A stretch of DNA of 64,000 bases from Sphingobacteriales bacterium. Its GTDB lineage: Bacteria; Bacteroidota; Bacteroidia; Chitinophagales; Chitinophagaceae. Of this stretch, positions 3,925 through 19,678 are shown one piece after another (position 1 is the stretch's first letter; every line of letters starts with the position of its first letter). The stretch covers positions 1 to 64,000 of the forward strand of contig JACPOD010000050.1 in the NCBI GenBank assembly GCA_016185185.1, in the 5' to 3' direction. Position numbers and translations under genes: made by a program. The notes beneath the pieces were generated by a model, which saw only the letters and a program-made list of their open reading frames with translations, did no database searches and was not told where the DNA came from.

Positions 3925-4851
3925 TTAATCAACAGCATATTTTATTTCCGCCACTTTTCGAATCTCATCCATAGTTTCCATCAGCAGTAAAGTATCTGCA
4001 TGTGTCATAACCGGGCTTTCGGTTGATCCTTTTTTCAAACATTCATTCACATGTCTCGCTTCATACTGGTAACCAAAGCCACCTTCTTTTTCAAATTCAA
4101 TTAGTTTTCTTTCACCTTTTACTTCGTGATATAATTGAATGGTGGCTGATGGTTCATAAAATCTTGTAGTAAGCGTAAGCCCGGCTTTTGTTCCGGCAAT
4201 TTCCATTTCAGTAGGAAGATTGGTGGTGAATGAAGAAAACAATTGTGCCATCGCTCCGTTATCATATTTAAACAAGACCGATAATTGTTCATCCACACCG
4301 GTAACAGCAGGCACCATAGTAGCTTCAATTTTATCCGGCTTTCCTAAAACAGATAAGGTCATAAACACATTATAAATACCAATGTCCAGTAAAGTACCGC
4401 CACCCAACGCAGGATCAAATAATCTTTGTGGTGCATTATCACCAGTACGGAAACCAAAATTTACCAGCACTGCTTTTATCTCACCCAGTGTTCCATCATT
4501 TAATAAACTCAGCAGCTTGTTATAGTGCGGAAGAAATTTAGTCCACAATGCTTCCATTAAAAAAACTTTCTTTTCTCTTGCCACGGCAATCATTTCCTTT
4601 GCCTGCCAGCTGTTGATAGCAAAAGCTTTTTCACACAATACAGCTTTATTATGATTCAGGCAAAGTAATGTATGTTCATAATGATGCGAATGGGGAGAAG
4701 CAATATAAATAACATCTACTTCATGATTATTTACCAGTTCTTCGTAACTGCCATGCGTATATTTGCAGTTATTATGATTGCTTCTCTTGATACTATGCGG
4801 AAATATTTTAGCAGTGGTGTTACCAGGCCTTATGCTTTCCGCATTCAACAA
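3925..4851 (-). pseudogene. Gfo/Idh/MocA family oxidoreductase lacking the N-terminal Rossmann GxGxxA region
   Basis: Family-like from NCKYTHGSYEELV...VDVIYIASPHSHHYEHTLLCLNHNKAVLCEK onward; the preceding residues are the antisense of the ALDH N-terminus. Confidence 0.75.
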
Positions 4852-9236: not shown

Positions 9237-9827
9237 TCAATCAATTCTTTTTTTTATGGATAGTTTACTTTTAGATGTTATATCATTTAAATGAAAACCA
9301 GTTTCCGCAAATAAAATTTCTTTATTGCATAATGTACCGTTTCTTAATCCTGTATAACCGGGGTAAGACGAATACGGCCATTTAGCCAAATCGTCCACAA
9401 GATTTGCCGTGAGTGGGTTTTGATGAATATAAAAGAAACATTGTTCAAGATAGCTGATGCTTTTACCATTTTCCGTTTCACTTAAAATTTTTGCTTTTGT
9501 TTTTTGCTGAAATAAAGACCCGGAACTGTGCTGCTCTTTATTAATAGCTTGTGAATAGCTGCTTAATAAGATACCTGTTCTGTATGAAAACTCCTGCATA
9601 GGTTTGCCGCCAAATGTATTCCTTTCTTTAACAGTGTTTTCATTTGCCTGTATGAGCAGGTGAAAATGATTGGGCATAAGGCAATAAGCAATTATATTGC
9701 ATACCGGAAGCAGTTGTTGCCTGGTTTTTTGAATAAAATAAAGATAATTGGCATGGTTGAAGAAGATGACTTGCTTGTTATTACCACGATTGTAAATATG
9801 ATAAAATTCTCCTTCGGAAAGGTGCAT
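9237..9827 (-). mobile_element. REP-associated tyrosine transposase (RAYT, Y1_Tnp/HUH family)
   Basis: FYHIYNRGNNKQ, CLMPNHFHLLIQ (HUH), FYIHQNPL, WPYSSY. Confidence 0.92.
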
Positions 9828-11121: not shown

Positions 11122-12240
11122 ATGTATCAGCAGAAACCAAATATTTCATATATATCGCAATTGGGTATTTTGATTGGCCTGGTTGGGGCAGGACTTTTAT
11201 TTGGAGGTATATTAAGTGTTGTCCTTCTGTTTTCACAACTGGGAATGGCAAAAGCAACAGATGTAACTCAATTATTTAAGCCGGAGAACGTAAACCTCCT
11301 GCGCTGGTTACAAATAATTTCTACCCTATTTATGTTTTTTGTACCAACTATTGTGTTTGCAAGAATAGTATCAAAAAAACCATTTCCTTATTTGGGTTAC
11401 AATAAATGGATAAAGGCTGAACAGGTTGTATTGGTAGTACTAATAATGATTGCCTGTTTACCGGTGGTAGGTGCATTGGGCGAACTCACACAAAAAATTC
11501 CGCTTTCACCCGGTCTGGCAAAGAAGTTTAAAGATGCAGAGGATAATTATGAAAAACAGGTAGAAACATTGATGGCGATGAAGAACAGTGCTGATTATAT
11601 CTGGTCAATGCTGATCGTTGCCATATTGCCGGCTGTTTTTGAAGAAACATTATTCCGGGGGGGATTGCAAAACATGTTGCTTCGATGGAAAAACAGCTCT
11701 CCTTTATATGTAATTGCTTTAGGAGTTATAGCAGCATTTATATACGGTGGCTGGTTTAATGGGGAGATGGGAATAGCAATATTTTCACCCTTACTAATAG
11801 CTATAATGGCAATTTTGATTTTTGTCAAACCAATAAAAACTGTACTTGACAAAATAACGAACCATTATTTTGCTGCAATTCTTTTAACCAGCATTATTTT
11901 TAGTGCCGTGCATTTTTCTTTCTTTGGATTTTTTGCCAGGGCAGCTTTAGGAGTTATACTCGGCCTTATTTATTATTACAGCGGAAATATCTGGCTTAAT
12001 ATACTGGCACATATGTTTAACAATGGTGCAGCAGTAACCTTTATGTATTTTCAAATAAAAAAAACGGGTAAGATGCCCGGTAAAGAACTGGACTCAACGA
12101 TGCCATTATGGTCAGGTGCTGTAGCATTGATAATACTGGCAGGGCTGATTTATGCATTTATCCGCATCAGCAAGCCGATGAAAGAAAAAGCGGACCAGGA
12201 AGCTGCACCACCGATGGAAGACAACTGGCTGAATCTTTAA
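11122..12240 (+). CDS. CPBP (CAAX/Abi) family intramembrane metalloprotease
   Basis: EETLFRGGLQNML motif, multiple TM segments. Confidence 0.9.
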   Translation: MYQQKPNISYISQLGILIGLVGAGLLFGGILSVVLLFSQLGMAKATDVTQLFKPENVNLLRWLQIISTLFMFFVPTIVFARIVSKKPFPYLGYNKWIKAEQVVLVVLIMIACLPVVGALGELTQKIPLSPGLAKKFKDAEDNYEKQVETLMAMKNSADYIWSMLIVAILPAVFEETLFRGGLQNMLLRWKNSSPLYVIALGVIAAFIYGGWFNGEMGIAIFSPLLIAIMAILIFVKPIKTVLDKITNHYFAAILLTSIIFSAVHFSFFGFFARAALGVILGLIYYYSGNIWLNILAHMFNNGAAVTFMYFQIKKTGKMPGKELDSTMPLWSGAVALIILAGLIYAFIRISKPMKEKADQEAAPPMEDNWLNL

Positions 12241-17923: not shown

Positions 17924-18634
17924 TTAATTGGTAAACTTATATCCCATTCCCCTTACAGAATGAAAATACCTTGGGTTACGGCTATCTTCTTCAAAATATT
18001 TACGAAAGCTGAGGATAAAATTATCAATCGTTCGGGTAGTAGGATATACATTATAACCCCAAACTGCCTGTAATATTTTTTCACGGGTAACTACTTCATT
18101 TTTATTTTCTATGAGCAGTTTAAGCAGCATAGCTTCCTTTTTGCTGAGTTCAATTTTTTCTTTTTTATAATTGATGGCCTCCAGGGCTTTAAAGTCAACA
18201 GAGTTGTTGCCAAAACTGTATTCACTGCCAATAGTTTCTTTATCGAGCAACAATTTATTTTTATCAATAAGCTTTTGCACCCTCAGTAAAAGTTCTTCCA
18301 GGTTAAAGGGTTTGGTTAAATAATCATCAGCCCCTTTTTTCAGCCCCAACACCCTGTCTGCGGAACTGTTTTTAGCACTTAATATTAAAACAGGCAGGGC
18401 AGTATGCTGCAGACGCAGGGTTTCTAATACAGTTATACCGTCAATCTCGGGCAGCATGATATCCAGTATCACTAAATCAAAATACTCGTTTTGTAAAGCT
18501 TTTAATGCAGAAGGTCCATCAAAGGCAGAACTTACTTCATAGCCTTCCATTTCAAGGTTAAGCTTAAGAGCTTCCTGTAAGTTCTCCTCATCTTCTACCA
18601 GTAAAACTGAAGCGATTGCTTTTTCCTTAGCCAT
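17924..18634 (-). CDS. OmpR-family response regulator
   Basis: VLLVEDEENLQ, DLVILDIMLPEIDGI, winged-helix TRTIDNFILSFRKYFE. Confidence 0.93.
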   Translation of the reverse strand: MAKEKAIASVLLVEDEENLQEALKLNLEMEGYEVSSAFDGPSALKALQNEYFDLVILDIMLPEIDGITVLETLRLQHTALPVLILSAKNSSADRVLGLKKGADDYLTKPFNLEELLLRVQKLIDKNKLLLDKETIGSEYSFGNNSVDFKALEAINYKKEKIELSKKEAMLLKLLIENKNEVVTREKILQAVWGYNVYPTTRTIDNFILSFRKYFEEDSRNPRYFHSVRGMGYKFTN

Positions 18635-18636
18635 TT

Positions 18637-19329
18637 CTATTTATAAAAATTAACTCCAAAGATAGTTCCACGGGGAGTATTATCTGTGATATTAATTTCA
18701 GCCCCGTGATCTTCAATGATCTTTTTGGTGATATATAATCCAAGCCCTGTGCCTTTTGTTTTACGGGTATTTTCATTGCCTACCCGGTAAAACTTATTAA
18801 AAACCTGTTTCTTTTCTGCATCGTCAATACCCGAGCCTTCGTCAGATATCTCCAGGTTTATTCTATCCCCCTCGTCTGTAAGATCAATATTTACCGTTGA
18901 GTCTTCCGGTGAATATTTTAATGCATTTTCAAGTAAGTTATTAACCGCAATTTGCATAAGCAGCGTATCTCCAATAACATACAGATCGGGTTCAATAGAA
19001 GATTCTATAATACGGTTAACAAACCGTTGTTTAAAATCCTGTACACAGCCGTCTGCTAAAACAGATAAATTGATCTCTTCTTTTTCTATACTAAGATTGC
19101 CGCTGTCAATTTGTGCAGCCAGTAAAATATTATTGGTTAATGTATTAAGGCGGTTTTCGAACTGTGGATCATCTTTAACCAGTTCCTGGATTTTATAATC
19201 GGTCATTGCTTTATTTTGTTTTTCTAAAGCGATATACCACCAGGACAGGGCAGCTATGATATATAAAAGAAGGAACCAGTAAACAACCGTAATGGAGGAA
19301 AGCTTATATATTTTTTTGCTAAAAGGCAT
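18637..19329 (-). CDS. Sensor histidine kinase with apparent internal loss of TM2 and DHp/H-box
   Basis: One TM, then KDDPQFE directly joined to NRLNTLTNNILLAAQIDSG; N-box NNLLENALKYSP and GTGLGLYITKKI present; no H-E-L/R-x-P. Confidence 0.85.
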   Translation of the reverse strand: MPFSKKIYKLSSITVVYWFLLLYIIAALSWWYIALEKQNKAMTDYKIQELVKDDPQFENRLNTLTNNILLAAQIDSGNLSIEKEEINLSVLADGCVQDFKQRFVNRIIESSIEPDLYVIGDTLLMQIAVNNLLENALKYSPEDSTVNIDLTDEGDRINLEISDEGSGIDDAEKKQVFNKFYRVGNENTRKTKGTGLGLYITKKIIEDHGAEINITDNTPRGTIFGVNFYK

Positions 19330-19678
19330 CAGCGGTTTTTTTCAATTCTTATTCCCGCATTCATCACATGGAGTAATGGGTTGTCACGCATATTTTGTTC
19401 CAGTTGAATGCTGTAAGTGCCCTGTTGTTTAAACCGGATCCCTTTAAATAAAATGATACGGTGTTGTATTCATAGGCCTCAGTATGCCTAAGGCTCAGGT
19501 AAATGTTGTAAGACGAAACAGTATCGCTAATAACAAAACTTATTTCCGGTTTATAATCCCAGGCCCATTCATGTTTGGGTATCTCAACGTTTTTTTCAAA
19601 CACGTCGATTTTCATGCAAGTGGCAAAACTTAACAAAAAACAAACGGTAAGCAAATAAATGATTGGAGATTTTTTCAA
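19329..19678 (-). pseudogene. gldH: Gliding motility lipoprotein GldH, internally deleted and frameshifted
   Basis: N-terminal CMKIDVFEKNVEIPKHEWAW...LRHTEAYEYN in one frame; C-terminal HRIILFKGIRFKQQGTYSIQLEQNMRDNPLLHVMNAGIRIEKNR* in another. Confidence 0.75.

What the first reader, a model, noticed from the sequence alone, without database searches (positions are those of the whole stretch)
18637..19329. Sensor kinase missing the phosphoacceptor histidine region by an apparently in-frame deletion
Seen: after TM1 and YKIQELVKDDPQFE the protein jumps to NRLNTLTNNILLAAQIDSG; there is no HELKTPI-like H-box or second TM. Knowledge: related Bacteroidota kinases have roughly 85-90 residues here (second TM plus DHp helix 1). 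ATP-binding motifs remain and an OmpR-type regulator gene follows at once. A kinase without its own His could act only in trans or as a phosphatase/decoy, or the gap is an assembly deletion.
Basis: partly seen in the sequence, partly recalled or inferred. Interest (0 to 1): 0.62.

Follow-up and report, generated by a model that had tools for sequence, protein, structure and literature searches.

The report
Assembly gap inside a sensor kinase
The sensor kinase really lacks 95 residues, including its phosphoacceptor histidine, in this sequence, but the same draft genome carries many similar blunt 117-285 bp losses, one of them removing an indispensable piece of its only RNA polymerase beta gene, so the gap is almost certainly an assembly error and not biology.

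Summary
The 230-aa frame at 18637-19329 (-) keeps TM1, the end of DHp helix 2 and an intact HATPase_c domain. It lacks TM2 and the whole HisKA H-box region. Against both same-genus genomes exactly 285 bp (95 aa) are missing, in frame, at about 19153-19160. Every relative that could be scored is full length with THELKTP; no compact family was found.

The reading as an altered kinase is not supported. The window belongs to a fragmentary draft genome (122 contigs, 81% complete) in which such losses are common. About 280 bp away gldH has a 130-bp frameshifting loss; a Gfo/Idh gene at 4768 has lost 194 bp with its start. In 248 kb aligned to two siblings, nine losses of 117-285 bp are private to this genome and none is private to a sibling; the siblings differ by one in 223 kb. 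One removes 39 residues of the only rpoB found: the rifampicin region plus fork loop 2, indispensable in bacteria. Junctions are nearly blunt, frame is random, and the broken genes show no decay. This is an assembly artefact, probably short gaps closed up.

The parts
18637..19329 (-). sensor histidine kinase gene as assembled: 230 aa, 95 aa shorter than orthologues
19153..19160 (-). junction at which 285 bp (TM2, linker, DHp helix 1 with THELKTP) are missing relative to both same-genus genomes
19225..19296 (-). first transmembrane segment (retained)
   Evidence: hydrophobic stretch read directly from the translation
18655..18969 (-). HATPase_c domain (retained, residues 121-225)
   Evidence: Pfam PF02518, 8.2e-25
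17924..18634 (-). OmpR/PhoB-type response regulator (Response_reg + Trans_reg_C), intact
19329..19678 (-). gldH lipoprotein gene, broken by a 130-bp frameshifting loss at about 19464-19466; the C-terminal half continues undecayed in another frame up to the kinase start
3925..4768 (-). Gfo/Idh/MocA oxidoreductase; a 194-bp loss at 4768/4769 removes the start and the N-terminal Rossmann motif
   Evidence: Pfam PF01408 matches only from profile position 53; alignment

Best explanation
The gene in the living organism is most likely an ordinary full-length (about 325 aa) class I sensor histidine kinase paired with the adjacent OmpR-type regulator. The missing 285 bp are an assembly error. This draft genome has near-blunt joins across intervals of 117-285 bp at roughly one per 27 kb of aligned sequence. 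I infer that the intervals are short unassembled gaps between linked contigs or mate reads, closed up without leaving Ns. Shown: the gap, its privacy to this genome, the many similar gaps, and the hit on rpoB. Inferred: that the kinase gap has the same origin as the rpoB gap, and the step of the assembly pipeline that produced them.
For: (1) Both same-genus genomes and all scored relatives are full length with THELKTP at a fixed 111-residue distance from the N box. (2) Nine private losses of 117-285 bp in 248 kb aligned (eight by script, plus gldH), no loss of this size private to a sibling, and one event between the siblings in 223 kb. (3) The only RpoB found in the genome lacks 39 residues that are identical in both siblings, the rifampicin region plus fork loop 2; no bacterium is known to live without it (established knowledge). 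(4) Junctions show 0-3 bp of possible microhomology; at C6:37769 both flanks keep their own GCAA copy, so that join is blunt. (5) Frame effects look random: kinase, one Gfo/Idh and rpoB in frame; gldH, the other Gfo/Idh and a VirJ-like gene not multiples of three. (6) The broken genes show no secondary decay: kinase CA part dN/dS 0.06-0.08, and the gldH C-terminus stays open and conserved in the other frame. (7) The genome is fragmentary, 81% complete in 122 contigs, and the 177 kb checked for Ns contained none, consistent with gaps closed up instead of marked.
Against: No reads or second assembly of the species were available, so the artefact is not shown directly at 19153-19160. The kinase gap, taken alone, is in frame and exactly 95 codons. 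The losses are uneven: C120 and C104 have none in about 50 kb aligned. I did not show which assembly step causes them; GC content and cross-species conservation of the missing pieces are unremarkable.
Confidence: 0.94

Rival explanations
1. A real recent deletion turned the kinase into a His-less protein that can act only in trans (as CA-domain donor to another kinase), as a phosphatase, or as a decoy for the adjacent regulator.
For: In frame, ATP-binding domain intact, regulator gene intact next door. Kinase variants that work as pseudokinases are known, for example ChrS of Corynebacterium glutamicum (PMC9491836), although there the CA domain is lost, not the His.
Against: No relative shares the form. 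TM2 and DHp helix 1 are gone too, so stable dimerisation would be doubtful. Equivalent losses elsewhere in the same genome hit gldH out of frame and rpoB in an indispensable region.
Confidence: 0.03
2. A real decaying gene or genome: the lineage is undergoing genome reduction with many small deletions and this kinase is a young pseudogene.
For: The assembly is smaller than the siblings (2.84 Mb at 81% complete against 4.0-4.5 Mb), and several genes carry losses.
Against: Genome decay would spare rpoB, would produce point frameshifts and stops as well, and would not give near-blunt losses confined to 117-285 bp. The broken genes show no secondary decay.
Confidence: 0.02
3. The deletion is a real minor variant in the source population, picked by the assembler as the shorter path of a bubble.
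For: Metagenome assemblers do collapse strain variants (general knowledge).
Against: It would require frequent damaging variants in the population, including a lethal one in rpoB, all with near-blunt junctions and a narrow size range.
Confidence: 0.01

Closest known systems
Orthologous HisKA-HATPase_c sensor kinase of same-genus genomes (RXJG01000004.1, isolate AWTP1-9; JACQDV010000055.1, isolate NC_groundwater_1004)
   Same: Same neighbours (gldH upstream, OmpR-type regulator downstream), same N-terminus and catalytic domain, 76-78% amino-acid identity over the shared part.
   Different: The orthologues are 325 aa and contain TM2 and the HisKA domain; 95 residues are absent in the window.
Histidine pseudokinases (for example the ChrS frameshift variant, PMC9491836)
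   Same: A kinase missing one of its two catalytic elements.
   Different: ChrS loses the CA domain, and the mutation was reproduced and had an effect; here the DHp/His part is absent and the absence is probably not real.
Local misassembly of draft metagenome bins (collapsed short gaps)
   Same: Private losses of a few hundred bases, near-blunt, hitting genes without regard to function, in a fragmentary genome.
   Different: The particular pipeline step is not identified here.

Membership tests
Class I (HisKA) sensor histidine kinase | HATPase_c catalytic domain with N and G boxes | tested here: met
   PF02518 8.2e-25; NNLLENALKY and GTGLGLYI present
Class I (HisKA) sensor histidine kinase | HisKA domain with phosphoacceptor His (HE[LF]KTP) | tested here: not met
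   No HisKA match in the assembled protein; present in both siblings
Class I (HisKA) sensor histidine kinase | Two transmembrane segments around the sensor part | tested here: not met
   Only TM1 in the assembled frame; the orthologues carry a second hydrophobic segment within the missing 95 residues (read directly)
Histidine pseudokinase of a conserved lineage | Compact or His-less form kept in related genomes | tested here: not met
   31 of 42 fetched loci could be scored and all have THELKTP at the same spacing; the other 11 did not pass the motif search
Assembly artefact (collapsed gap) | Similar losses elsewhere in the same assembly, rare between close relatives | tested here: met
   9 private losses in 248 kb against 1 sibling-sibling event in 223 kb
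Assembly artefact (collapsed gap) | Losses strike indispensable sequence | tested here: met
   39 residues of the only RpoB found are missing
Assembly artefact (collapsed gap) | Reads disagree with the junction | not testable with these tools
   No reads, and no second assembly of the species, are held

The most novel reading that the evidence does not exclude
The deletion is real and the organism uses a membrane-anchored CA-domain protein without its own histidine, which phosphorylates another kinase's DHp domain in trans or dephosphorylates the adjacent regulator.
Probability: 0.03. Interest if true: 0.5.

Novelty: not a real feature. Interest (0 to 1): 0.06.

Why it matters
For biology, little: the gene is an ordinary sensor kinase. 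For users of this draft genome it matters more: at about one silent loss per 27 kb of aligned sequence, roughly a hundred junctions could be expected genome-wide (extrapolation). In-frame ones, such as this kinase or the GLPGLI/serine-hydrolase fusion, look like new protein architectures and would mislead any survey of truncated or fused proteins.

Tried and rejected
Compact kinase family: rejected, since no short relative was found among 98 matching genomes (shortest open frame 280 aa) or in the genome-contig scan. Missing segment placed on another contig: not found (the rpoB search was a short query without a positive control, so it shows little by itself). Missing pieces being unusually conserved between species or unusual in GC, which would point to shared-k-mer tangles: not supported. 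Repeats or microhomology at junctions pointing to real recombination: 0-3 bp only. Literature on this kind of assembly error: one unrelated paper.

Full report
Observation. The frame at 18637-19329 on the minus strand encodes 230 residues: a TM1-like N-terminus, YKIQELVKDDPQFE, then directly NRLNTLTNNILLAAQIDSG and an intact HATPase_c domain. No HisKA domain and no second transmembrane segment are present. A Response_reg/Trans_reg_C regulator follows 2 bp downstream (17924-18634).

Size of the gap. The window is contig C79 of a 2.84-Mb, 122-contig, 81%-complete genome. Two same-genus genomes hold the orthologous locus with the same neighbours; one is a groundwater bin, the other is isolate AWTP1-9. 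Their kinases are 325 aa with HisKA at residues 107-172. Alignment gives exactly 285 bp missing in the window against both, at about 19153-19160. Every relative that could be scored by motif (31 of 42 loci, a few genomes counted twice) has THELKTP at a fixed 111-residue distance from the N box. Among 98 matching genomes of the order the shortest open frame is 280 aa. No compact family was found.

The neighbourhood. The gene upstream, gldH, has its own loss of 130 bp about 280-310 bp away. It is out of frame, but the C-terminal half continues, conserved and open, in another frame down to the kinase start codon. At 4768/4769 a Gfo/Idh gene has lost 194 bp with its start and Rossmann motif, again against both siblings. 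Three losses in 15 kb pointed away from kinase biology.

Genome-wide sample. I compared 12 stretches or contigs (248 kb aligned) with the two siblings. Scripted criteria (100-320 bp, tight junction) gave these losses private to this genome: C79:4768 (194), C79:19155 (285), C119:34013 (225, another Gfo/Idh, in frame), C119:37650 (179, fusing a GLPGLI protein to a serine hydrolase), C6:20650 (200-224, atpH-atpA intergenic), C6:37769 (265), C116:39189 (245, VirJ-like; gene name from recall of the family), and C4:26762 (117, rpoB). gldH (130) was added by hand. A further candidate at C79:38372 is seen against one sibling only and is not counted. By the same criteria no loss appears in a sibling relative to this genome, and one event separates the two siblings in 223 kb. 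Three of the losses (C119:37650, C6:37769, C116:39189) could be checked against one sibling only.

The decisive case. The only RpoB found in the genome lacks [39 protein letters not shown], 39 residues identical in both siblings and present in solved bacterial polymerases at the corresponding place. That is the rifampicin region and fork loop 2; from established knowledge no bacterium is viable without it. So this loss cannot be real. The kinase loss resembles it in size, near-blunt junction with 0-3 bp of possible overlap and privacy to this assembly; that they share an origin is an inference.

Against evolution. The remaining kinase codons are under ordinary constraint (dN/dS 0.06-0.08 for the CA part), and the broken gldH shows no further decay. 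Real old deletions would be followed by decay; real recent ones at this density, including one in rpoB, are not credible.

Mechanism of the artefact (inferred). Sizes of 117-285 bp with near-blunt joins and no Ns in the 177 kb checked fit short gaps between linked contigs or mate reads that were closed up instead of being filled with Ns. GC content and cross-species conservation of the missing pieces are unremarkable, so I cannot say why these places failed to assemble. Reads were not available.

Verdict. If the short protein existed, it would be a CA-only membrane protein acting in trans, which I put at about 3%.

Noticed in passing
window 19329-19678: gldH broken by a 130-bp out-of-frame loss relative to both siblings; the C-terminal half remains intact in another frame.
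   Followed up: yes
window 4768: Gfo/Idh oxidoreductase lacks 194 bp including the start and N-terminal Rossmann motif.
   Followed up: yes
L146 (G000:C4:15001-35000), about 11762: The only rpoB found lacks 39 codons (rifampicin region and fork loop 2) in frame.
   Followed up: yes
L050 (G000:C119:20001-40000), 14013 and 17650: A second Gfo/Idh gene lacks 225 bp in frame; a GLPGLI-family gene and a serine hydrolase gene are fused in frame by a 179-bp loss.
   Followed up: yes
L053 (G000:C116:30001-41049), about 9188; L055 (G000:C6:20001-40000), 17769: Further private losses: 245 bp in a VirJ-like gene, and 265 bp between a phosphatase-like gene and a beta-propeller gene.
   Followed up: partly
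window 11672-11871: CPBP-family protease carries about 169 bp absent from both siblings; it looks like extra transmembrane sequence. Direction of change not determined.
   Followed up: partly
window 9237-9827: A small transposase-like (REP-associated/IS200-type, by eye) gene lies in a stretch of about 800 bp absent from sibling G001.
   Followed up: no
G000 as a whole: The class I tRNA-synthetase search found no equivalent in this genome of the 890-896 aa frames (probably ValS) seen in both siblings, consistent with 81% completeness.
   Followed up: no
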